A stretch of DNA of 40,199 nt from NCBI GenBank assembly GCA_902788415.1, contig CADAKF010000008.1:1-40199 (forward strand), written 5' to 3'. Below, one piece after another: positions 10,276 to 30,273 of this stretch; the first letter of the stretch is position 1, and each line of letters opens with the position of its first letter. The stretch comes from an uncultured bacterium (GTDB lineage Bacteria > Verrucomicrobiota > Kiritimatiellia > RFP12 > UBA1067). The notes below the pieces were generated by a model. That model was not told the DNA's origin. It made no database searches and worked only from the letters and a program-made list of their open reading frames with translations. Position numbers and translations under genes: made by a program.

Positions 10276-11823
10276 TCAGCCCATGATTGACTTGATGTCT
10301 CCGTCGACGCCGCCAATTCCGCACAGGCCGAACCGCTCGAGTAGCGTCCGCGCGACACCCGGCGAGACGAACGCCGGCAACGTGGGCCCAAGACGGATGT
10401 TGCGGAAGCCGAGCGACAGCAGCGCCAGCAGGACTGCGACCGCCTTCTGCTCGTACCAGGCGATGTCGAAGGCGAGCGGCAGCTTGTTGACATCGTCAAG
10501 TCCAAACGCATCCTTAAGCGCGAGTGCGATTCGCACCAGCGAATACGAGTCGTTGCACTGGCCGGCGTCAAGAACGCGCGGAATGCCGGCGATCTCGCCC
10601 TTCACGTCCTTGATGTACCGGTATTTGGCGCATCCGGCCGTGAGGATCACCGTGTCGTGCGGCAGCTCGAGGGCGAGACGCGTGTAATACTCGCGCGTCG
10701 CGTGGCGTCCGTCACAGCCGGCCATCACAACAAACTTGCGGATCTGGCCGGACTTGACCGCGGCGACGATCTTCTCCGTAAGCGCCAGCACCTGGTCGTG
10801 CGCAAAGCCCCCGACGACCTCGCCCGACTCGAGGGACTTCGGGGGCGGACACTTCTTCGCGCACGCGACGACGGACGAGAAGTCCTTCGGCCGCCCCTCC
10901 TTGCGGTCCGCGACATGCGGCACGCCCGGATAGCCCGCGACGCCAGTCGTAAAGATACGGCCGCGGTAGGCATCCATCACCGGCACGATGCAGTTCGTCG
11001 TCATCAGGATCGCCCCGCCGAAATCGGCGAAGTCCTTCTGCTGACGATGCCATGCGCCGCCGTAGTTGCCCTTGAGGTGCGGATACTTCCGAAACGCCGG
11101 ATAGGCGTGGGCCGGCAGCATCTCCCCGTGCGTATAGACGTCGACGCCCGCATCCTTCGTCTGCTCAAGGAGCTCGGCGAGATCGCGGAGGTCGTGTCCC
11201 GACACGAGAATGCCCGGACGGTTACCGACGCCGAGGTTCACGCGCGTCATCTTCGGGTTTCCATAAGCGGCCGTATTGGCCGCGTCCAGAAGCGCCATCG
11301 CGCTGACGGCGTTCTTGCCGCAGTCGAGGACGAGCTGCGTCAGCTCCTCCGCCGTGCGTTTCTCGCCAAGTTCCCGCAAGGCCCGGAGGATGAAAGCGTA
11401 GACCGCCTCGTCCTCGCGCCCAAGCATCGCGGCATGATGGCAATAGGCGGCGACACCCTTCAGCCCGAACAGCGTCAGCTCCTTCAGGCTGCGCAAATCG
11501 GCGTTCGGTTCGTCAAACGCCCCCGGTCTCTTGCGCGCGCAGACACGCCCGAGACGATGCTCGGCTTCGGCAATCGCCGTCTTGAGGCGTTCGTCGTCGA
11601 AGTTTGCGTTCGTGAGCGTCAGGAAAAGCGACAATGTGACGAAGCGTCCGAGTTCAAGCGACGGTTCCTTCTCCGCCGCCAAGTCCTCAAGCCGCGCCAC
11701 GAGCTCGTCCATTAGCCCTGCTGTGGCGGGACGCTTTCCGCACACGCCTCCCCGCGTGCAGCCGGAGTTCCCGAAGGCCTCCTGGCACTGGCGGCAAAAC
11801 ATGGTCTTCTCGCTGTTGTTCAT
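10276..11823 (-). CDS. hcp: Hydroxylamine reductase / hybrid cluster protein
   Basis: Hcp is a cytoplasmic iron-sulfur enzyme that reduces nitric oxide or hydroxylamine and protects anaerobes against nitrosative stress. The 515-residue product has the N-terminal Cys cluster (Cys10, Cys13, Cys22, Cys28) and the hybrid-cluster ligand regions: YTHGEMLPAHAYP, TTNCIVP, GVAGYPGVPHV, GCDGRHATREYYT, ILTAGCAKYRY and DAGQCNDSYS. The start is the ATG before NNSEKTMFCRQCQ, with AAGGAT 8 bp upstream; the longer open frame would run through the promoter. It has its own promoter with a GTTG-N6-CAAC dyad, shared with three other genes, which points to Crp/Fnr control. Confidence 0.96.
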   Translation of the reverse strand: MNNSEKTMFCRQCQEAFGNSGCTRGGVCGKRPATAGLMDELVARLEDLAAEKEPSLELGRFVTLSLFLTLTNANFDDERLKTAIAEAEHRLGRVCARKRPGAFDEPNADLRSLKELTLFGLKGVAAYCHHAAMLGREDEAVYAFILRALRELGEKRTAEELTQLVLDCGKNAVSAMALLDAANTAAYGNPKMTRVNLGVGNRPGILVSGHDLRDLAELLEQTKDAGVDVYTHGEMLPAHAYPAFRKYPHLKGNYGGAWHRQQKDFADFGGAILMTTNCIVPVMDAYRGRIFTTGVAGYPGVPHVADRKEGRPKDFSSVVACAKKCPPPKSLESGEVVGGFAHDQVLALTEKIVAAVKSGQIRKFVVMAGCDGRHATREYYTRLALELPHDTVILTAGCAKYRYIKDVKGEIAGIPRVLDAGQCNDSYSLVRIALALKDAFGLDDVNKLPLAFDIAWYEQKAVAVLLALLSLGFRNIRLGPTLPAFVSPGVARTLLERFGLCGIGGVDGDIKSIMG

Positions 11824-11835
11824 GTCACACCATCC

Positions 11836-11973
11836 TTTCTCCTTTGTCGTTCGGAACCCCTTGGCGTCCCGGCCACTCGGCCGAACCCGCCTTTCCTCCC
11901 GACGGTGCACATTATGCACCATTCCGGCCTCCTTGTCCGTTGTAGTTACAACGGAATTGCAAATCTTCAGTTT
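11836..11973. repeat. 138-bp direct repeat, copy A (hcp promoter and leader)
   Basis: This segment matches 16617-16754 at all but three of 138 positions. It holds the whole hcp promoter, the dyad and the untranslated leader up to just before the ribosome binding site. Its upstream edge overlaps the last 7 bp of the RAYT-type transposase gene. The leader includes a GTTCGG...CCGAAC stem conserved in both copies. Confidence 0.9.
11911..11954 (-). promoter_or_regulatory. hcp promoter with GTTG-N6-CAAC operator
   Basis: On the minus strand a CATAAT -10 box lies 22 bp from a 14-bp dyad GTTG-N6-CAAC, here within the perfect 18-bp inverted repeat CCGTTGTAACTACAACGG. With a start 7 bp past the -10, the dyad is centred at about -41.5, the position of class II Crp/Fnr activation. 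No good -35 box is present, as expected for an activator-dependent promoter. Confidence 0.75.
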
Positions 11974-12974
11974 CCGCCAATCCAGATGGAGCCTAACCTT
12001 ATCAGCCCCTCGGGCCGCCAGTAGACCGCCAGCCCTTCGCCAGCCGTCGCGATTTTAACGATTTCTTCGTTATACTCAAGGCAAGCCGCCCGACCAAACT
12101 CAACCTCTTCGTTACCTTTAGCTAGCTCTAAATAGCGATTTTCGAGAAAAGCTTCAACATACACGCTTTCAGGCTTGTAGTTGAGCGGCATCATACTTGG
12201 CAATATTCGAATAAATTTCGCTTTTTTATTGCGACAACAGAGGTCTCTCACCAGCTTCTCGCCAGGGCTGATGAAGCCGCTAAGTATCGTAAATCCCCTC
12301 TCAATTGCGCTTTCCATTCGTTTTACGACTTCTTCAAGGTGTTTCCCTTTAACCTGCCGCGAAATACGAAGCGAGACAATCTTATTCTCTTCGTCTAATA
12401 GCGCGACGGTACCAACGCCTTTCCAATAATCGGCTCGGTCAAGCCGCGGCGAATCGAGTGGTTCAACAATGCGAAGCGCCTCTGGGCGATTCTTCATCAA
12501 CTCCCATTTCGCGACGTTGTAGGCGATATAACGCTCGGTTGAGGCAATTTTCTGCTCGTTTGGCAGCAAATGGTCGTGATAGCCCTGCCGCCAGCCGAAC
12601 TTGGCAGTTAGGCCAAACGCTGTTTGGCCATCGCGACTTACTTTAGAAATATGATTCTTCAGCCGCCTCACCGCGTTACCCAAAAACTTCAGTGGCTCGT
12701 TAAGCCCTGGTACGATATGGCAGTTGAAATGAAGATGATCTGGCATCACCACGCGACCGAAAAGCGACAGGCCCGGGTTGTAAAGTGGCAACGCCTCAAG
12801 CGACCTCAGCGCCTCTTCTCCAAGCGGCGTCAGTTTCAGCTTGCCGTCGACAATCGACCCAAACGCTGGTTGCCGCGGTTCAGTCACCAGCGTAATGAAA
12901 AGCGACGCCCCCCGGCTGTAATCCCAGCCCATAAATCGCCGATAGCGCTTTATCTCCTTGTGGGGCGAGGTCAT
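11967..12974 (-). CDS. RAYT/Y1-type HUH transposase with extra C-terminal domain
   Basis: REP-associated tyrosine transposases are single-strand endonucleases of the IS200/IS605 (Y1) superfamily. Residues 20-165 show the core: FITLVTEPRQPAFGSI, the HUH pair in MPDHLHF (His80, His82), and the helix ERYIAYNVAKWEL with the likely catalytic Tyr149. The protein is about 335 residues, roughly twice the core. The remainder (about 185-335) contains ERGFTILSGFISPGEKLVRD followed by a beta-strand-like KFIRILP, which resembles a Rossmann-type DprA/LOG-like fold; this is a pattern impression, not a proven match. No recognisable insertion-sequence ends were found, so it may be a domesticated single-copy gene. 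A TTG at 12981 is an alternative start. Confidence 0.8.
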   Translation of the reverse strand: MTSPHKEIKRYRRFMGWDYSRGASLFITLVTEPRQPAFGSIVDGKLKLTPLGEEALRSLEALPLYNPGLSLFGRVVMPDHLHFNCHIVPGLNEPLKFLGNAVRRLKNHISKVSRDGQTAFGLTAKFGWRQGYHDHLLPNEQKIASTERYIAYNVAKWELMKNRPEALRIVEPLDSPRLDRADYWKGVGTVALLDEENKIVSLRISRQVKGKHLEEVVKRMESAIERGFTILSGFISPGEKLVRDLCCRNKKAKFIRILPSMMPLNYKPESVYVEAFLENRYLELAKGNEEVEFGRAACLEYNEEIVKIATAGEGLAVYWRPEGLIRLGSIWIGGN

Positions 12975-12975
12975 C

Positions 12976-13335
12976 TCAATCAAACGGTCTCGCGCTTTTT
13001 TCTCCTGGGTGTCGCTTCAAATCTCGCGCCGCCAACCCGAAGCACGTTATAAGCATCAACGGACACCAGACCGCAAGAGTTCCTATCAGAAGCCCACAAA
13101 TCATTTCTCGCGCAGTTTGATCATAAGAGGCGAAGCAGTCACGGAAGATCCATTTCGCTCCCCATTGACAAACAAACAACGAGCCAATGAGCAGCGCCAA
13201 CCAAACCCGCGCAGCTGTTTTGGCGAAATTCAAAGTCACCCCAACAGCCTTGTACTTATCGTGGCGATAGACCCAAACGCGCGGGTCGTTTCGATTGTAA
13301 TAGACGCCGAACTTCAACAAACTCTCAGGCTTCAT
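12976..13335 (-). CDS. DUF5808-like membrane protein
   Basis: The 119-residue product begins with KFGVYYNRNDPRVWVYRHD and VGVTLNFAKTAARVW, resembling the short DUF5808 motif (YYNPxDPRxxVPKR...GWTLNF). Two hydrophobic segments follow (WLALLIGSLFVC and ICGLLIGTLAVWCPLMLI), so it is probably an inner-membrane protein. The chosen ATG is the second of two adjacent ATGs because GGAGG lies 5 bp before it. The stop abuts the transposase start. Function is unknown. Confidence 0.6.
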   Translation of the reverse strand: MKPESLLKFGVYYNRNDPRVWVYRHDKYKAVGVTLNFAKTAARVWLALLIGSLFVCQWGAKWIFRDCFASYDQTAREMICGLLIGTLAVWCPLMLITCFGLAARDLKRHPGEKSARPFD

Positions 13336-13428
13336 CATCACCTCCCGAACCGTATCACACCAAACCAACCGCCTCTCTAACCGCTCCAACCCAACCAGTT
13401 CAATCCAGATGGTCGAGCTGTGCTCGAC

Positions 13429-13642
13429 CTATCCTTCGTACACCCCTTCGATCTCGACGACGTAGACATCGTGGAGCGAGCCGCCAGGCTGGTTGCCGTA
13501 CCACTTCTCGAGAATCGACTTGTCGATGAAGTTGGCAGCGGGTAAGGCGTACCTGCTCGAAGGTCATCGCACCGCTGTCAAGCGCCACGCCGAGCGCAGC
13601 AACCCCTTCTACAAACTCCTTGCGATCGATCTTTTGCATCAT
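13429..13642 (-). pseudogene. Small gene with an apparent frameshift
   Basis: The first frame reads MMQKIDRKEFVEGVAALGVA and onward to about FEQVRLT, then turns into arginine-rich nonsense. In a neighbouring frame the same DNA continues as NFIDKSILEKWYGNQPGG and ends DVYVVEIEGVYEG before a stop at 13429. The joined product would be about 70 residues. The family was not recognised. A TATACT box lies 9 bp before the ATG. A small GGTCGAGC/GCTCGACC hairpin follows the stop. Confidence 0.4.
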
Positions 13643-13651
13643 TCGAGTTTT

Positions 13652-13657
13652 AGTATA
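13652..13657 (-). promoter_or_regulatory. Extended -10 close to a start codon
   Basis: TGA-TATACT on the minus strand lies only 9 bp before the ATG at 13642. The predicted transcript would have a leader of about 3 nt and no ribosome binding site. Confidence 0.5.
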
Positions 13658-13742
13658 TCACAAACCTCCACTTGAGGTCCTGATCAAGGCTCATGGCGCA
13701 GGCAATGCCGATGCGCGAGGTCTCCACAAAGTCCCTGAAAAG

Positions 13743-13775
13743 CGAAGGACCCGGAGAACTCACTCCGGGCCCTTG
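13743..13775 (-). terminator. Terminator-like hairpin after eamA, repeat copy 1
   Basis: A stem of about 10 bp (GGACCCGGAG with CTCCGGGCCC, one mismatch) encloses a 6-nt loop and is followed on the minus strand by CTTCGCTTTTC. It is nearly identical to the hairpin at 14829-14860 on the other side of the transporter gene. Between it and the transporter stop, the transporter frame continues past its TAA for 29 further codons to a TAG. Confidence 0.6.
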
Positions 13776-13873
13776 GGGAAGATCTACGCCTGAAACTCGA
13801 ACTTGGAGCCGCTACCATCTCCTTTCTTTTTTGGCCCGCGGACATGATCTTCAACCGTTGCGCTGGCGTAAAC

Positions 13874-14764
13874 TTATCCATCCCGACCTCTCGTCTCGAT
13901 GGCGGCGGAACCGACGATGAACGCCGTGCCAAGCCATTGCAGCCAAGTCACCCCTTCGCCTAGAAAGGCAATGCCCATTGCCATCGCAATGACCGGCGTG
14001 AAGTAGGCCGTCATCGCCAACGTCGAGGTCCGAAGATACTTTTGCGCCGCGTTCCACGTCCAGAACGACATCAGCGTCGAGATGAGTCCGAGTCCGCCGA
14101 CCAGTGCCCACGACTTCGGCGCCGACGGCCAGGCAAAGTCGCCGAACGGAAGGACGAGCCCGATCATGCCCGCCCCAAGCAGCATCGTCCAAGTCGTGAA
14201 GACGGACGAGCCCAGCTTCCGGTTGAGCCGCTTGCCGAAGACCGTATAGACACCCCACGTGGCCGCCGACAGGAGAATGTACACGTCGCCCATTGAATAG
14301 GCATTCAGCTTGAGACCGTTCCCATCGACAATCTGAATCACCAGCACGGCACCGATGAAACCGCTCGCAAGCCCGCACAACCCCTTCACGTCGACACGGC
14401 GACGAACCAGTGCGTCGACGAGATAGATCATGAGCGGCGTCAGGGCGTCGGCCATCGACGCGTTGGCCGTGCTGACGCGGGCGCAGCCCTTGAAGACGCA
14501 CCACGCCATGATACAAGTTCCGACCGGAGCGAGCCATGCCATCTCCAGCCAATCACCACGCGTCGGGGATGCGAGCCGCGCACGCCCCTTCGCCGTCGCC
14601 GCCCCGGCCGCCAGCATCGCGCCGCCAGCAATCGCAAAACGCAGAAACGACAACACCTCCGGCGAGACGCCGCACTCCTTCGTCAGTGCCCCGCCAAACA
14701 CAAATGTCGCCGCAAAGCCCGTGATGGACAGCGCAGCAAGAAAGAATCCGAGCAGAATCCTCAT
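13874..14764 (-). CDS. EamA/DMT-family transporter
   Basis: The 296-residue product has ten hydrophobic segments in two EamA repeats, typical of inner-membrane drug/metabolite transporters that export small metabolites. The start is the ATG before RILLGFFLAAL, with GAGAAGGGG just upstream; a longer frame would run into the promoter (TGG-TATACT near 14790). The family signature around GFIGAVLVIQIVDGN and the second-repeat GEGVTWLQWLGTAFIVGS are present. The substrate cannot be predicted. A near-identical hairpin flanks it on each side. Confidence 0.88.
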   Translation of the reverse strand: MRILLGFFLAALSITGFAATFVFGGALTKECGVSPEVLSFLRFAIAGGAMLAAGAATAKGRARLASPTRGDWLEMAWLAPVGTCIMAWCVFKGCARVSTANASMADALTPLMIYLVDALVRRRVDVKGLCGLASGFIGAVLVIQIVDGNGLKLNAYSMGDVYILLSAATWGVYTVFGKRLNRKLGSSVFTTWTMLLGAGMIGLVLPFGDFAWPSAPKSWALVGGLGLISTLMSFWTWNAAQKYLRTSTLAMTAYFTPVIAMAMGIAFLGEGVTWLQWLGTAFIVGSAAIETRGRDG

Positions 14765-14828
14765 ATCCCCTTCTCCCTTTTGCTGCATCAGTATACCACA
14801 AATCGGCATTTGCGGCCCTCAGACAACA

Positions 14829-14860
14829 CGAAGGCCCGGAGAACTCGCTCCGGGCCCTTG
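14829..14860 (-). terminator. Terminator-like hairpin after desulfoferrodoxin, repeat copy 2
   Basis: An 11-bp perfect stem (AAGGCCCGGAG with CTCCGGGCCTT apart from one extra C) lies just downstream of the desulfoferrodoxin stop. It differs from the hairpin at 13743 by one substitution in the loop and one indel in the stem. Confidence 0.7.
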
Positions 14861-14876
14861 TCAAGAGTCGCGTCCT

Positions 14877-15254
14877 TCAGTTCGCCAGGGCCTTCCACAG
14901 GCCATGCAGGTTGCAGTATTCGTAAACGGACTTCACCTTGTCACGCGGCACGAGCGCAAAAGTCGCTTCGGGCTTGTCCCCGGCCTTGAGCTCCTTGCGC
15001 TGATTGCCGTTCTCGGTCTCGATGGCGATCCACTCGATGCGGTGGGCATCCATCATCGGATGCTCCGCCGAACCGACCTTCACCGTGACCGTGCCGCCCG
15101 CCACCGTGTAGACTGGGACGTGCTTTTCCTTCGCGCCGTCGGTCGTCCCCGGGACGAGCTCGCGCATCGGCTTGCCGCAGCAGACCGTATCAACAGCCGT
15201 TGCCTTGACCATTGCAACGATCTTGCCGCAAATGTCGCACTTGTAGAATTTCAT
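14877..15254 (-). CDS. dfx: Desulfoferrodoxin (superoxide reductase)
   Basis: This cytoplasmic enzyme reduces superoxide to peroxide without making oxygen, taking electrons from rubredoxin. The 125-residue class I form has an N-terminal desulforedoxin domain (Cys6, Cys9, Cys25, Cys26) and a C-terminal centre II with HVPVY, EHPMMDAHRIEWI and the closing CNLHGLWKA that supply the His4Cys iron ligands. Rubredoxin is encoded about 2.2 kb away in the same orientation. It follows the QueD-like gene by 27 bp and is probably in its transcript. The ribosome binding site is GGAGG. Confidence 0.96.
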   Translation of the reverse strand: MKFYKCDICGKIVAMVKATAVDTVCCGKPMRELVPGTTDGAKEKHVPVYTVAGGTVTVKVGSAEHPMMDAHRIEWIAIETENGNQRKELKAGDKPEATFALVPRDKVKSVYEYCNLHGLWKALAN

Positions 15255-15281
15255 AGCAACACCTCCGTTTCGTTTGATTGA

Positions 15282-15887
15282 TTATTCGCCTTCCGGACGA
15301 TGATAGCCGCACTTCGGACAAGCCCCGTCCTTCAGCGCGATGCCGCACCACGGACACCGGTCCATCGTCATGCGGGACGGGAACTCGGCCGTCGCCACAT
15401 TGACGCCACTCGTGAAGGTGATCTTCACGATGTTGAGCTTGTCCTTCAGGAGCTCGTACACCATCTTGATGAACCCCTCGACGGTCATGGTCTCCTTTGT
15501 GACCACGAGTCGGCACTCGGGATAAGCGGTGCAGAGGTCCGTCTTGAACGCAGGGCCCTTCATCGTGTTCGTGGGCGCGCCGTTCCGAATCCCCTGCTTC
15601 TCGTACACAGCAAGAATCGCCGGGAGGAGCGGATCGTCCTCGCGCAAGACAAGCGCGTGGTCGAAGTTCTTCAGGACGTTCCACGCCGTCTTCTGGATCT
15701 CGTTACACGGGAAAACCATGTTGACGCCGGGATTGACCGAGTCCTCGACCTCAAGCGTCAGCCCGCCGGTGTGACCGTGCAGGTACTGCGCCTCGCCCTT
15801 GAACCCGTAGAACCGGTGAGCGTACTGGATGTCGAGATGAGCGACGGACCGAATCGTCTTGCAGCAGCAGTTGGTGCTCTTGTTCAT
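15282..15887 (-). CDS. QueD-like 6-pyruvoyl-tetrahydropterin synthase family protein with zinc ribbon
   Basis: The family makes 6-carboxytetrahydropterin for queuosine or related pterins. The 201-residue protein has the core HLDIQYAHRFYGFKGEAQYL and the LHGHTGGLTLEVE metal-ligand motif, with a NFDHALVLREDDPLL segment. The C-terminus adds a zinc ribbon, CPWCGIALKDGACPKCGYH (two CxxC pairs), and the N-terminus carries an odd triple Cys (NKSTNCCCKTI). The start is chosen at the ATG with AAAGGA upstream. Its place beside desulfoferrodoxin rather than beside queuosine genes leaves its true substrate open. Confidence 0.85.
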   Translation of the reverse strand: MNKSTNCCCKTIRSVAHLDIQYAHRFYGFKGEAQYLHGHTGGLTLEVEDSVNPGVNMVFPCNEIQKTAWNVLKNFDHALVLREDDPLLPAILAVYEKQGIRNGAPTNTMKGPAFKTDLCTAYPECRLVVTKETMTVEGFIKMVYELLKDKLNIVKITFTSGVNVATAEFPSRMTMDRCPWCGIALKDGACPKCGYHRPEGE

Positions 15888-15952
15888 AGTCGTGATCCTT
15901 TCGTTATACGTTTGATTGGTAGGGCGCGCAACCCCTGCGCGCCGCAGTTCTT

Positions 15953-15990
15953 CTTCGGCGCAAGGCAAACTGTCTGACCTTGCGCCGAAG
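15953..15990 (-). terminator. Terminator after the Cys-rich lipoprotein
   Basis: A perfect 13-bp inverted repeat (CTTCGGCGCAAGG with CCTTGCGCCGAAG) with a 12-nt loop begins 11 bp past the lipoprotein stop. A second GC-rich hairpin lies at 15922-15943. Confidence 0.7.
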
Positions 15991-16000
15991 AGCGGAGGGC

Positions 16001-16300
16001 TTAGTTGACGCCTCCTCCGGCACCTGCCGTCACGCCGTCAGCGCCAGCGCCGACGTTCGCGTTCGCGGACATGCTGCGGCTCCCGACGTTCGAGTCGCTG
16101 CCGACACGAATGCCGTCCGTGCCAACCCCGACGGTCATCGAGGTGTTGACGCCGCTCGTTTTCTTCCCGCAGCACTCTTTCTTGCAGCAAGGATCCTTGC
16201 AGCAGTCCTTCGAGCCGAACATGCAGCAGCCCGTAAGAGCAACCGCCAGTGCGCCTGCCGTCACCGCAACCTTAACCGACTTCGTGATGATCTTGTTCAT
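16001..16300 (-). CDS. Cys-rich lipoprotein, unknown function
   Basis: The 99-residue product has a lipoprotein signal peptide ending in lipobox LTGC (Cys25), so it should be anchored to an envelope membrane. Directly after it come paired cysteines CC-x6-CC-x3-CC-x3-CC (Cys25-Cys44), a plausible metal- or thiol-reactive patch, and then a Gly/Ser/Val-rich tail without cysteines (SMTVGVGTDGIRVG and similar). The family was not recognised. The ATG preceding NKIITKSVK has GGAGG about 10 bp upstream; an upstream in-frame start lies in the promoter. Its promoter carries the same dyad as hcp and rubredoxin. Confidence 0.8.
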   Translation of the reverse strand: MNKIITKSVKVAVTAGALAVALTGCCMFGSKDCCKDPCCKKECCGKKTSGVNTSMTVGVGTDGIRVGSDSNVGSRSMSANANVGAGADGVTAGAGGGVN

Positions 16301-16356
16301 AAATCGTGCACCTCCGTTTTGTTTCGCGGGAAGAACCATTCCTCCCGACGCCGCAC

Positions 16357-16398
16357 ATTATGCACCATTTCGCTTTCGTTGTATGTTGGAAAAACAAC
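16357..16398 (-). promoter_or_regulatory. Lipoprotein promoter with GTTG-N6-CAAC operator
   Basis: A CATAAT -10 box and the dyad GTTGGAAAAACAAC are separated by 22 bp, the same geometry as at hcp although most of the surrounding sequence differs. This makes shared regulation more convincing than shared ancestry alone. Confidence 0.7.
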
Positions 16399-16432
16399 GA
16401 AAATGAAATTTGGCCGAATCGACGAAACGAAA

Positions 16433-16454
16433 GGCGCGGCATTTCTGCCGCGCC
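16433..16454 (-). terminator. Terminator after the 36-residue membrane protein
   Basis: A perfect 9-bp stem (GGCGCGGCA with TGCCGCGCC) has a 4-nt loop and is followed on the minus strand by TTTCGTTTCG. It separates the small gene from the lipoprotein promoter. Confidence 0.75.
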
Positions 16455-16494
16455 TGAGTCGACTCTGCTTTTGCATTACTTCGTCGCGGATTCT

Positions 16495-16605
16495 TCAGGT
16501 CGCGCAATCGCGACGGCGGCGGCAACGGCAGCAGTAGCCGATGAATCCGCACACGATCAGGAATCCGACAATTCCGACAGCAGCCCAGATCAGGATATTC
16601 GTCAT
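16495..16605 (-). CDS. 36-residue Cys/Arg-rich membrane microprotein
   Basis: The product starts MTNILIWAAVGIVGFLIVCG, a single transmembrane helix, and ends in a short cytoplasmic or periplasmic tail YCCRCRRRRDCAT, with four cysteines among arginines. GAGGTG lies 4 bp before the ATG. The gene has a dedicated promoter nearly identical to that of hcp and a strong terminator just after it, which supports a real gene despite its size. No family is recognised. A membrane-anchored thiol or metal site is possible but is inference. Confidence 0.7.
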   Translation of the reverse strand: MTNILIWAAVGIVGFLIVCGFIGYCCRCRRRRDCAT

Positions 16606-16616
16606 AGCGCACCTCG

Positions 16617-16754
16617 TTTCTCCTTTGTCGTTCGGAACCCCTTGGCGTCCCAGCCACTCGGCCGAACCCGCCTTTCCTCCCGACGGCGCACATTATGCAC
16701 CATTCCGGTCTCCTTGTCCGTTGTAGTTACAACGGAATTGCAAATCTTCAGTTT
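16617..16754. repeat. 138-bp direct repeat, copy B
   Basis: This is the second copy of the hcp promoter-leader segment, with three substitutions. It drives the 36-residue membrane protein. Both copies are in the same orientation, 4.8 kb apart, so recombination between them would delete the transposase, transporter, desulfoferrodoxin, QueD-like and lipoprotein genes. Confidence 0.9.
16692..16735 (-). promoter_or_regulatory. Microprotein promoter with GTTG-N6-CAAC operator
   Basis: The CATAAT -10 box, 22-bp spacing and perfect 18-bp inverted repeat are the same as at hcp. Confidence 0.75.
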
Positions 16755-16798
16755 TCGTATCTGCCGCCGAAAGACGCTTCATCTGCTCTTCAGCCTGA

Positions 16799-17413
16799 TC
16801 AGATGAAGTTCGTCTGCACCAGCTGTTCCTTCTCGGGCAGTCCATATTTCTCCTTGCCGAGGGCAATCGACTTCATGAGAAAAACCATGTTCTTCGCGAG
16901 GGTACGCATCGTTTGCAGGCCCTCGGCGTCTTCCTCCGCCTCGCCGGGCGTACAGCCGTGGACGCTGTTCCAGTACTGGCTCGAGGCGATCGGCATGCCG
17001 GAGATCGTGAAGTACTTGTTCAGGACATCGAACGTCGCCGAACAACCGCCGCGGCGAGCGACCGCCACCGACGCGCCCACCTTCATCCGCTTGTCGAACG
17101 GAGTGGAGAAGAACAGCCGATCGAGAAAGGAGACGAGGGTCCCGTTCGGCGAGGCGTAATAGACCGGCGAGGCAACGACCAAGCCGTCGGCCTCCTTGAA
17201 CTTGTCCGCCGCCTCGTTAACGACATCCTCGACCACGCACTTGCCGAGTTTCTTGCACGTGTAGCAGCCGAGGCAGCCGGGAACGCGCTTGATGCCGAGC
17301 TCCACGTTTTCGACTTCGACGCCTTCTGCGGCGAAGACCTTCTTCAGTTCACCAATCGCCACGGACACGTTCCCGTCACGATGCGGACTTCCATTTACAA
17401 TCAGAACCTTCAT
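16799..17413 (-). CDS. Flavodoxin-fold NAD(P)H-dependent reductase / iron-sulfur flavoprotein family
   Basis: The 204-residue protein begins KVLIVNGSPHRDGNVSVAI, the FMN phosphate-binding loop of the NADPH-dependent FMN reductase family. A compact Cys motif CLGCYTCKKLGKC near residues 47-59 is typical of iron-sulfur flavoproteins and related reductases of anaerobes, and SPVYYASPNGTLVSFLDRL is the second flavin loop. It probably transfers electrons in redox stress defence. It lies downstream of rubredoxin in the same direction, but a terminator separates them. Confidence 0.88.
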   Translation of the reverse strand: MKVLIVNGSPHRDGNVSVAIGELKKVFAAEGVEVENVELGIKRVPGCLGCYTCKKLGKCVVEDVVNEAADKFKEADGLVVASPVYYASPNGTLVSFLDRLFFSTPFDKRMKVGASVAVARRGGCSATFDVLNKYFTISGMPIASSQYWNSVHGCTPGEAEEDAEGLQTMRTLAKNMVFLMKSIALGKEKYGLPEKEQLVQTNFI

Positions 17414-17441
17414 TTTCCGTTTCCCTAAAACAGTCCGGAAA

Positions 17442-17481
17442 AAGCGACGGGACGCGACTTTTTCGCCGCACCCCGTCGCTT
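17442..17481 (-). terminator. Rubredoxin terminator
   Basis: A perfect 10-bp stem (AAGCGACGGG with CCCGTCGCTT) is followed on the minus strand by TTTTTCC, starting 16 bp after the rubredoxin stop. Confidence 0.85.
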
Positions 17482-17496
17482 GAGTCTCAGACCTGC

Positions 17497-17646
17497 TCAG
17501 TTGTAGGCCGGCTCAAAGTCGTTCTTGCCGACGCCGCAGAGCGGACAATGCCAGTCCGCCGGCAGGTCTTCGAACGCCACATTGTTGTTCTCCGCCGGAT
17601 CGTAGATCCAGCCGCAGATCTTGCACACGTACTTTGTCTTGTTCAT
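17497..17646 (-). CDS. rub: Rubredoxin
   Basis: Rubredoxin is a small one-iron electron carrier that feeds superoxide reductase and rubrerythrins. The 49-residue product has the two ligand loops [14 protein letters not shown] (Cys8, Cys11) and [15 protein letters not shown] (Cys34, Cys37). AAGGAAGGTG lies just upstream of the ATG. It has its own promoter with TATAAT and the same dyad as hcp, so it is probably induced together with hcp and supplies electrons to desulfoferrodoxin. Confidence 0.95.
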
Positions 17647-17695
17647 ATCACACCTTCCTTTCTCTTAAAGTCGCTCGTTTCGTTTGACGCCCTAT

Positions 17696-17737
17696 ATTAT
17701 ACACTATTTCGCTTCCGCTGCATGTTGGAGATACAAC
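17696..17737 (-). promoter_or_regulatory. Rubredoxin promoter with GTTG-N6-CAAC operator
   Basis: A consensus extended -10 (TG directly before TATAAT) and the dyad GTTGGAGATACAAC are again 22 bp apart, centring the dyad at about -41.5. The flanks resemble the lipoprotein promoter (AGCGAAAT between the elements) more than the hcp one. Confidence 0.75.
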
Positions 17738-29604: not shown

Positions 29605-30273
29605 TCATCCGAGCAGCTTGAAGTGGTTCTTCACCGATTCGACCTTGCGTTCGCGACGGAGCTTCGAAAGCTCGGCCGAAAGCGCGCTCCGGTCGACACA
29701 CAGGAAATCGGCAAGCTCCTGACGGTCGAACGGAATGTCGAACTCCTTCGCCTGCTTACGCTTCGCAAGAATCCGCAGGAACAGCAACAGGCGTCCGCGG
29801 ATCGTCCGCTGCGACAGGATACGAAGCTTCCGCTTGATCTGGAAGGTCGTCTGGCTCATCACCGTCAGGAGATTGTGCAGAAAATGGAGATGCGCTGAGC
29901 AGACCTTGTGACAAGGGCGCAGGATGCGGTCCGTGCCGAAGAGAAGGACGACCGCCTCGCCGACGGCGCTCATGCTGATGCCCATCGTCTTCGCATCGCG
30001 GAAGACATAGGTCATACCGAACGCACCGTTCTCGGAAATCGTCTCGAGGACGGCGCGAGAGCCGTCAAGCTGCTGGCACGAGAGCTGCACCGCTCCCGTC
30101 GCAACGACGCCAATGCACGTGCAGGGATCCGACTCGCGCACAAACGTCTCCTTGTTCTTCAGCCGCAGTTCCCTCACGTTCATGCATTCGCAGATCTGGC
30201 GAAAGCCCGCCTCGTCGAGGTCCTTCAGGAGCCGGCAGGCACGCGGAAAGATGATCTTCGGACTTTTCTTCAC
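29605..30273 (-). CDS. Crp/Fnr-family transcription regulator, HcpR-like
   Basis: The 222-residue protein has an N-terminal cyclic-nucleotide-binding-like sensor fold (FVRESDPCTCIGVVATGAVQ) and a C-terminal helix-turn-helix FDRQELADFLCVDRSALSAE typical of Crp/Fnr proteins found near hcp in anaerobes. It lacks an Fnr-like N-terminal Cys cluster; a few cysteines (Cys10, Cys26-Cys30 region) do not form that motif. The GTG start overlaps the stop of the preceding small gene. It is the natural candidate to bind the GTTG-N6-CAAC sites upstream of hcp and rubredoxin; that link is inference. Confidence 0.9.
   Translation of the reverse strand: MKKSPKIIFPRACRLLKDLDEAGFRQICECMNVRELRLKNKETFVRESDPCTCIGVVATGAVQLSCQQLDGSRAVLETISENGAFGMTYVFRDAKTMGISMSAVGEAVVLLFGTDRILRPCHKVCSAHLHFLHNLLTVMSQTTFQIKRKLRILSQRTIRGRLLLFLRILAKRKQAKEFDIPFDRQELADFLCVDRSALSAELSKLRRERKVESVKNHFKLLG

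What the first reader, a model, noticed from the sequence alone, without database searches (positions are those of the whole stretch)
11911..17737. Four promoters share GTTG-N6-CAAC exactly 22 bp upstream of the -10: a candidate nitrosative/oxidative stress regulon
Seen directly: at 11939-11952, 16720-16733, 16385-16398 and 17724-17737 the dyad GTTG-N6-CAAC occurs, each with 22 bp to a CATAAT or TATAAT -10 box on the minus strand. This centres the dyad at about -41.5. Known: class II Crp/Fnr activators bind at -41.5, and HcpR-type Crp/Fnr proteins control hcp in many anaerobes. The genes driven are hcp, a 36-residue Cys/Arg-rich membrane protein, a Cys-rich lipoprotein and rubredoxin. An HcpR-like Crp/Fnr gene lies at 29605-30273. 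Inference: this protein binds the dyad and the two small proteins belong to the stress response.
Basis: partly seen in the sequence, partly recalled or inferred. Interest (0 to 1): 0.75.

Follow-up and report, generated by a model that had tools for sequence, protein, structure and literature searches.

The report
Crp/Fnr switch for anaerobic redox-stress genes
Four promoters in an uncultured gut bacterium share what is very likely the binding site of a Crp/Fnr-type switch protein, and the same site recurs beside related switch genes in many other anaerobes, where it faces genes that handle nitric oxide, nitrite or electron transfer.

Summary
All four GTTG-N6-CAAC dyads lie exactly 22 bp from CATAAT/TATAAT, the only such matches in the 1.9-Mb assembly. 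The promoters are partly copies of each other, so the window alone is weak evidence. Relatives decide it: among 80 named loci with relatives of the window's Crp/Fnr protein (mostly gut Clostridia), 67 have an exact dyad within 450 bp upstream of that gene, against 7 dyads in the other 449 kb. In 55 of 67, all Bacillota or Kiritimatiellae, a near-consensus -10 lies exactly 22 bp away on the divergent strand. Divergent genes include ferredoxin, hcp, D-lactate-type dehydrogenase, flavodiiron protein, rubredoxin and an NrfA-like nitrite reductase.

Best reading: an HcpR-like class II Crp/Fnr regulon with operator GTTG-N6-CAAC. The likely regulator is 29605-30273, the only full Crp/Fnr gene found in the assembly. 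By operon, superoxide reductase and an FMN reductase probably join. Binding, signal and the two small proteins' roles are untested. The closest orthologue's genome shows neither hcp nor such promoters. Most novel hint: C30/C121/C125/H128, possibly a new metal or Fe-S sensor.

The parts
11939..11952 (-). dyad GTTGTAACTACAAC, operator of hcp promoter
   Evidence: a similar dyad GTTGTAAGTACAAC precedes the superoxide reductase-hcp operon of relative G034
11911..11916 (-). -10 box CATAAT of hcp, 22 bp from dyad
10276..11823 (-). hcp, hybrid cluster protein / hydroxylamine reductase
   Evidence: PF03063 1.5e-148; PRK05290 2e-212
16720..16733 (-). dyad GTTGTAACTACAAC before the 36-aa gene; promoter and leader are a near-identical copy of the hcp one
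16692..16697 (-). -10 box CATAAT of the 36-aa gene
16495..16605 (-). 36-aa Cys/Arg-rich protein, one membrane segment by eye; no family; followed by a terminator-like stem at 16455-16432
16385..16398 (-). dyad GTTGTTTTTCCAAC before the lipoprotein operon
16357..16362 (-). -10 box CATAAT of the lipoprotein operon
16001..16300 (-). Cys-rich lipoprotein-like protein, 99 aa, no family
15282..15887 (-). 6-pyruvoyl tetrahydropterin synthase/QueD-like protein, probably same operon as the lipoprotein
   Evidence: PF01242 4.5e-10; operon inferred from order
14877..15254 (-). superoxide reductase (desulfoferrodoxin), probably last gene of the lipoprotein operon; terminator-like stem at 14858-14831
   Evidence: PF01880 and PF06397 over cut-off; TIGR00320 131.4 bits, below its cut-off of 146.9
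17724..17737 (-). dyad GTTGTATCTCCAAC before rubredoxin
17696..17701 (-). -10 box TATAAT of rubredoxin
17497..17646 (-). rubredoxin
   Evidence: PF00301 5e-15
16799..17413 (-). NADPH-dependent FMN reductase/flavodoxin-fold protein, probably co-transcribed with rubredoxin
   Evidence: PF03358 8.6e-26; operon inferred from order
29605..30273 (-). Crp/Fnr-family regulator proposed to bind the dyad; the only full Crp/Fnr gene found in the assembly

Best explanation
The four dyads are operators of an HcpR-like Crp/Fnr transcription activator, most likely the protein of 29605-30273, acting in class II position (centre -41.5) at promoters whose -35 is poor or absent. Shown by comparison: relatives of this protein, with a strongly conserved recognition helix (in the genus C-V-E/D-R-S-A-L-S), sit beside exactly this dyad in five phyla (Bacillota, Kiritimatiellota, Synergistota, Actinomycetota, Chloroflexota), and at exactly this distance from a good -10 in the first two. 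Inferred: on a redox or nitrosative signal the dimer binds GTTG-N6-CAAC and recruits RNA polymerase to transcribe hcp, rubredoxin-FMN reductase, lipoprotein-QueD-like-superoxide reductase, and the 36-aa gene. Not shown: binding, which signal, and what the two small proteins do.
For: (1) Only 4 dyad+22+YATAAT sites in the assembly, control 0. (2) In 61 genomes of the genus, 25 of 55 dyad+8-38+TATAAT sites have gap 22, where 31 gaps were possible; the sites are not independent of ancestry. (3) Genomes with a gap-22 site are almost all genomes with a close Crp relative (E 1e-15 or better, 26 of 61): 16 of 17, against 10 of 44 without such a site, Fisher p 3.5e-7; for dyads at other gaps, p 0.012 with all of them and p 0.32 with a list, made by hand, that leaves out dyads shared with a gap-22 site or a Crp gene; hcp and Crp: 12 of 13 hcp genomes, p 5e-5. 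Shared ancestry is not corrected for. (4) Of 30 genus Crp loci scanned (30 of the 54 matches; they include the window, four fragments and four distant paralogues), 16 have an exact dyad within 700 bp upstream; 14 of these 16 have a 5/6 or 6/6 -10 at gap 22, 12 on the divergent strand and 2 towards the Crp gene itself. (5) In 80 named loci, 67 dyads in 35.2 kb upstream of the Crp gene against 7 in 449 kb, and this dyad ranks first among all 4-base dyads with gaps 4, 6, 8 (67 of 80 loci; best unrelated 23). (6) 55 of 67 have a -10 of at least 5/6 at gap 22 on the divergent strand. (7) Divergent genes by signature: 45 ferredoxin, 10 D-lactate-type dehydrogenase, 5 hcp, 2 flavodiiron, 1 rubredoxin, 4 other (one NrfA-like, L190; one ferritin-like, L170), of 67. 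(8) Recognition helix kept at about 35% overall identity. (9) The dyad is in the register of CRP GTGA-N6-TCAC and HcpR2 GTAAC-N4-GTTAC, and R kept but E replaced by S at CRP positions 180/181 fits the published rule R180-G3, E181-A6 (passages of PMC1274295; the register and residue alignments are mine).
Against: No dyad lies within 700 bp upstream of the window's own Crp gene (L052), unlike many relatives. The closest orthologue (L118, 68% identical, same helix) is in a genome G084 where I found no hcp, no dyad with 20-24+NATANT, and where none of 12 dyads has a hexamer of 5 of 6 at 21-23 bp. Three of 11 genus hcp genes with readable upstream sequence have no exact dyad (G080, G003, G032). G034 has gap 23 and TACAAT. 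G078 has a good gap-22 site without a close Crp. In 23 genomes of the same order but other families, 3 have dyad+20-24+NATAAT sites (5 sites) and none is at gap 22. In the four dyad loci outside Bacillota and Kiritimatiellae (L168, L180, L182, L192) no hexamer of 5/6 is at gap 22. No binding or expression data exist here. The four promoters are partly duplicates.
Confidence: 0.82

Rival explanations
1. The dyad is bound by a different family of regulator (for example MarR or Rrf2 type) that co-occurs with these genes; the Crp/Fnr gene is a bystander.
For: A paper on a MarR regulator, AcsR of Corynebacterium glutamicum, contains the string GTTG-N6-CAAC (listing only). In the window the Crp gene is 12 kb from the cluster, and G084 has the Crp orthologue without such promoters.
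Against: The dyad lies in the control region beside relatives of the Crp gene in 67 of 80 named loci and 16 of 30 genus loci; centre -41.5 is the Crp/Fnr class II position.
Confidence: 0.1
2. The window's four sites are merely copies of one promoter spread by duplication, with the dyad kept by recent descent and not by function.
For: hcp and 36-aa promoter+leader align over about 149 bp; lipoprotein and rubredoxin promoters over 57 bp.
Against: Between the more diverged pairs the dyad arms, the gap and the -10 are kept while bases inside and between change; such sites recur in other genomes and phyla.
Confidence: 0.05
3. Same operator, but the protein represses instead of activates, or mainly controls fermentation/electron balance (ferredoxin, D-lactate dehydrogenase) and not nitrosative stress.
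For: 45 of 67 divergent genes are ferredoxins and 10 are D-lactate-type dehydrogenases, only 5 hcp; HydG is a target in G009 and G061.
Against: -41.5 is an activator position and -35 boxes are poor; hcp, flavodiiron, NrfA-like, rubredoxin and superoxide reductase targets point to NO, nitrite or oxygen products.
Confidence: 0.25

Closest known systems
HcpR regulons of anaerobes (HcpR1/HcpR2; passages of PMC1274295 and PMC545781)
   Same: Crp/Fnr regulator, often beside hcp and a ferredoxin gene (frdX), operator upstream of a promoter, targets hcp, ferredoxins and, in Geobacter/Desulfuromonas, nitrite reductase nrfHA.
   Different: Operator here is GTTG-N6-CAAC, not wTGTGA-N6-TCACAw, TTGAC-N4-GTCAA or GTAAC-N4-GTTAC. 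The paper says that HcpR2 of C. thermocellum and C. difficile have Ser at position 181 and other motifs, shown only in a figure I could not read; those may be this operator. That the ferredoxins here are orthologues of frdX was not tested.
HcpR of Porphyromonas gingivalis (PDB 9DAY; passages of PMC12750200)
   Same: Highest-ranked solved structure for the predicted model: Z 17.1, rmsd 3.7, 217 aligned, 18% identity, tied with CAP, FNR and GlxR rows at 16.9-16.1; activates hcp.
   Different: Its heme residue Met68 aligns with Cys66 of the window protein (my mapping from the primers and the alignment); the six commonest residues there (90 of 104 rows) do not include Met.
FNR of Gram-negatives and of Bacillus ([4Fe-4S] at the N- or C-terminus; passages of PMC12937710)
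   Same: Fold and DNA-binding class; possible Fe-S chemistry.
   Different: Conserved set here is C30, C121, C125, H128, a different arrangement.
DNR NO regulator of Pseudomonas
   Same: Crp/Fnr family, without the FNR cysteine motif by PMC1274295; second best sequence match among solved structures (6.5e-17).
   Different: Binds an FNR-like TTGAT-N4-ATCAA box and controls denitrification (PMC1274295).

Membership tests
HcpR | Crp/Fnr two-domain architecture | tested here: met
   PF00027 and PF13545 over cut-off; model pLDDT 91.7
HcpR | candidate operator upstream of hcp | tested here: met
   window hcp and relatives G016, G001, G025, G034; 3 of 11 readable genus hcp genes lack an exact dyad
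HcpR | regulator gene beside hcp or a ferredoxin gene | tested here: inconclusive
   met in many relatives; in the window the gene is about 18 kb from hcp and 12 kb from rubredoxin
HcpR | operator equal to a published HcpR consensus | tested here: not met
   GTTG-N6-CAAC differs from the three consensus sequences; motifs of the Ser181 HcpR2 proteins could not be read
HcpR | falls in HcpR1 or HcpR2 branch of a tree | not tested
   no reference HcpR sequences were placed in the tree
HcpR | heme ligand Met68 of P. gingivalis HcpR | tested here: not met
   Cys66 in the window protein at the aligned position; that paper shows Met68 conservation for Porphyromonas/Prevotella, so it may not define all HcpR
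HcpR | response to NO or nitrite | not testable with these tools
   needs expression data
FNR ([4Fe-4S], Gram-negative type) | N-terminal cysteine triplet plus a central cysteine (C20, C23, C29, C122 in E. coli: recalled) | tested here: not met
   window protein has C13, C28, C30 in the N-terminal part, no CX2C
Class II Crp/Fnr-dependent promoter | operator centred at -41.5, weak -35 | tested here: met
   22-bp gap in all four; -35-like CGGACA, 9 of 12 with the -10, in two promoters, none listed for the others; start sites not measured

The most novel reading that the evidence does not exclude
The regulator belongs to a cross-phylum Crp/Fnr subfamily with its own operator (GTTG-N6-CAAC) and a third kind of cysteine-based sensor: C30, C121, C125 and H128 ligate an Fe-S cluster or metal between the N-terminal helix and the start of the dimer helix. 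The three cysteines are present together in 91 of 104 rows and absent together in 10 (8 distinct sequences; the other 3 rows are two with gaps there and one with a single change), including G061, whose sister in the tree, G080, has them. One operator and DNA-binding helix would thus serve two sensor chemistries.
Probability: 0.35. Interest if true: 0.72.

Novelty: new variant of a known kind. Interest (0 to 1): 0.55.

Why it matters
It gives a checkable operator, with exact spacing in Clostridia and Kiritimatiellae, for a Crp/Fnr subfamily that also has the dyad in a few loci of Eggerthellaceae, Synergistota and Chloroflexota, and so a way to list nitrosative/redox regulons in uncultured gut anaerobes from sequence alone. 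It also points to a testable sensor site that matches neither of the two Fe-S FNR arrangements described in the passages read (PMC12937710), nor the Met68 heme ligand of P. gingivalis HcpR.

Tried and rejected
Rejected: chance; a plain sigma-70 -35 role for the dyad (only CGGACA, 4 of 6, overlaps its edge in two promoters).

Considered and left: the bases GCGCCGTC just after the -10 recur in many regulon promoters of the genus. In the own genome 5 sites with up to 1 mismatch (control 1) include 3 of the 4 promoters. Genus-wide there are 28 exact TATAATNYGCGCCGTC sites in 16 of 61 genomes, and only 6 of the 28 coincide with gap-22 sites, so I treat it as a promoter habit of the group, not as part of the operator.

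The search for relatives of the 36-aa protein and the lipoprotein was only against loci held, and found none but themselves. Of the 80 named loci, 13 have no exact dyad within 450 bp: L118, L122, L129, L130, L137, L139, L140, L158, L159, L179, L181, L186, L188; both spirochaete loci (L122, L188) are among them. L139 and L181 have under 120 bp of upstream sequence, and L130 (identical protein to G001) has its dyads further out (L059). The 80 are the best of 553 confirmed stretches, ranked by likeness to the window protein, so cysteine conservation in them is partly a result of that ranking; some rows are duplicates of genus rows. Dropped before the 104-row alignment: 11 of 35 genus rows (fragments, distant paralogues, fused frames). 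At gap 17 there is also a -10-like hexamer in 53 of 67, a tandem TATACTATAAT; I did not resolve which is used. Several genus gap-22 sites (G064:C5, G064:C37, G001:C96, G073:C8) show no known redox gene downstream. L123 and L152 count as ferredoxin on ORF calls with an uncertain start. The flavodiiron, NrfA-like, ferritin-like and HydG names rest on matches below the NCBIfam cut-offs (HydG was given only in part). Coordinates of the model were not available, so distances between C30, C121, C125 and H128 were not measured. A search for six spellings of the operator in the paper library found one paper, on another regulator family; RegPrecise itself was not searchable, so the operator may already be listed there.
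Full report
What is there. The minus strand carries rubredoxin (17497-17646) and an FMN reductase (16799-17413); a 36-aa gene (16495-16605) with a terminator-like stem after it; a lipoprotein-like gene (16001-16300), a QueD-like gene (15282-15887) and superoxide reductase (14877-15254) with a terminator-like stem after it; an EamA transporter; a REP-associated-transposase-like gene; and hcp (10276-11823). The terminator scan as a whole finds no more stems than shuffles do (6 against 7.8), so the operon ends are guesses. The four dyads precede rubredoxin, the 36-aa gene, the lipoprotein gene and hcp, each with exactly 22 bases to CATAAT or TATAAT.

Is it more than chance. In the window there are 5 dyads where shuffles give 0.63. 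In the assembly the dyad itself is not enriched (14 places; control 18), but dyad+22+YATAAT occurs exactly four times, all here, with 0 in the control. The other ten dyads lie in open frames of at least 100 aa without a good -10 at 21-23 bp (the same mechanical frame test also covers two of the four). The four are not independent: the hcp and 36-aa promoters are about 149-bp copies, and lipoprotein and rubredoxin promoters align over 57 bp.

The genus. Among 61 genomes, dyad+8-38+TATAAT gives 55 sites in 31 genomes, 25 of them at gap 22. Genes behind gap-22 sites include a ferredoxin, hcp, D-lactate-type dehydrogenase, HydG, a C-GCAxxG-C-C protein, and Crp/Fnr genes themselves; a few have no known redox gene. 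Of 17 genomes with such a site, 16 have a close relative of the window's Crp/Fnr protein (26 of 61 have one at E 1e-15 or better); of 13 genomes with hcp, 12 have it. Of 14 hcp matches, 11 have readable upstream sequence: 4 have a dyad directly upstream (window, G016, G001, G025), 1 via a superoxide reductase-hcp operon with gap 23 (G034), 3 lie behind a ferredoxin gene and were not judged (G004, G030, G062), and 3 have no exact dyad in the 300-500 bp looked at (G080, G003, G032). G025's -10 at gap 22 matches only 4 of 6. In 23 genomes of other families of the order no site is at gap 22.

Across phyla. A scan of named genomes with the Crp alignment returned 80 loci. Upstream of the Crp gene (450 bp, 35.2 kb in all) there are 67 exact dyads, one in each of 67 loci, against 7 in the remaining 449 kb. 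Without assuming a sequence, GTTG-N6-CAAC is the commonest of all 4-base dyads with gaps 4, 6 or 8 (67 of 80; TGTT-8 and TTGA-4 are nested in it; best unrelated 23). In 55 of 67 a hexamer matching TATAAT at 5 or 6 of 6 lies exactly 22 bp away on the divergent strand; these are Bacillota and Kiritimatiellae, while the four dyad loci of Synergistota, Eggerthellaceae and Chloroflexota (L168, L180, L182, L192) do not reach 5 of 6 there. The divergent genes are, by signature, 45 ferredoxins, 10 D-lactate-type dehydrogenases, 5 hcp, 2 flavodiiron proteins, 1 rubredoxin and 4 others, of which one is NrfA-like and one ferritin-like.

The regulator. The window protein is the only full Crp/Fnr found in the assembly; a second HTH match is below cut-off in a 92-aa frame. 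Overall identity to ten relatives of the genus is 27-35%, but the recognition helix CVDRSALSAELSKL is almost letter for letter that of dyad-neighbouring relatives, such as CVERSALSAEISRL, while distant paralogues in the genus read GVTRPALSRALSQL. In the 80 named loci it varies more (31 read DRSGLSA), but R-S at the two specificity positions holds in 99 of 104 rows. Rodionov and colleagues correlate R180 with G3 and E181 with A6 of the site (passages); R kept and E lost fits an operator that keeps GT and loses the A. In the tree the window protein groups with L118 (100/100) and, weakly and with long branches, G034 (80/72).

Against. The gene has no dyad of its own. Its closest orthologue's genome shows neither hcp nor a dyad promoter. 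That genome may be incomplete, or its sites weaker; I could not tell. So the step from the family to this one protein rests on the shared helix and on the lack of another candidate in an 83% complete assembly.

Sensor. C30, C121, C125 and H128 are conserved together in 91 of 104 rows; 10 rows (8 distinct) lack all three cysteines, 8 of the 10 keeping the histidine. In the model (pLDDT 91.7) C30 ends the first helix and C121-H128 lead into the dimer helix. Met68, the heme residue of P. gingivalis HcpR, is not kept. I infer a metal or Fe-S site; nothing here shows a cluster.

Verdict. Its kind is known; the operator may already be recorded for Ser181 HcpR2 proteins, whose motif I could not read. 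The sensor idea is the most novel part. Papers used: PMC1274295, PMC545781, PMC12915319, PMC12750200, PMC12937710, passages only; PMC13118786, listing only.

Noticed in passing
window Crp 29605-30273 and 103 further rows: Co-conserved C30, C121, C125, H128: candidate metal or Fe-S site; the three cysteines are present or absent together in 101 of 104 rows.
   Followed up: partly
11823-11990 and 16606-16771: About 149 bp of promoter plus leader duplicated nearly intact upstream of hcp and of the 36-aa gene; the leader could form a GTTCGG/CCGAAC hairpin by eye.
   Followed up: partly
11967-12983: REP-associated tyrosine transposase-like gene (NF047646, 3.3e-10, below its cut-off) between hcp and the rest of the cluster.
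   Followed up: no
genus promoters, e.g. L096, L112; G000:C2:28476-28490: GCGCCGTC follows the -10 in many regulon promoters, and a ferredoxin promoter of the own genome with no dyad in the 90 bp shown (L116) has nearly the same bases.
   Followed up: partly
80 named loci, divergent strand: A second -10-like hexamer at gap 17 in 53 of 67, overlapping the one at 22 as TATACTATAAT.
   Followed up: no
L190: NrfA-like cytochrome c nitrite reductase gene divergent from a Crp gene with the dyad in a Clostridia MAG.
   Followed up: no
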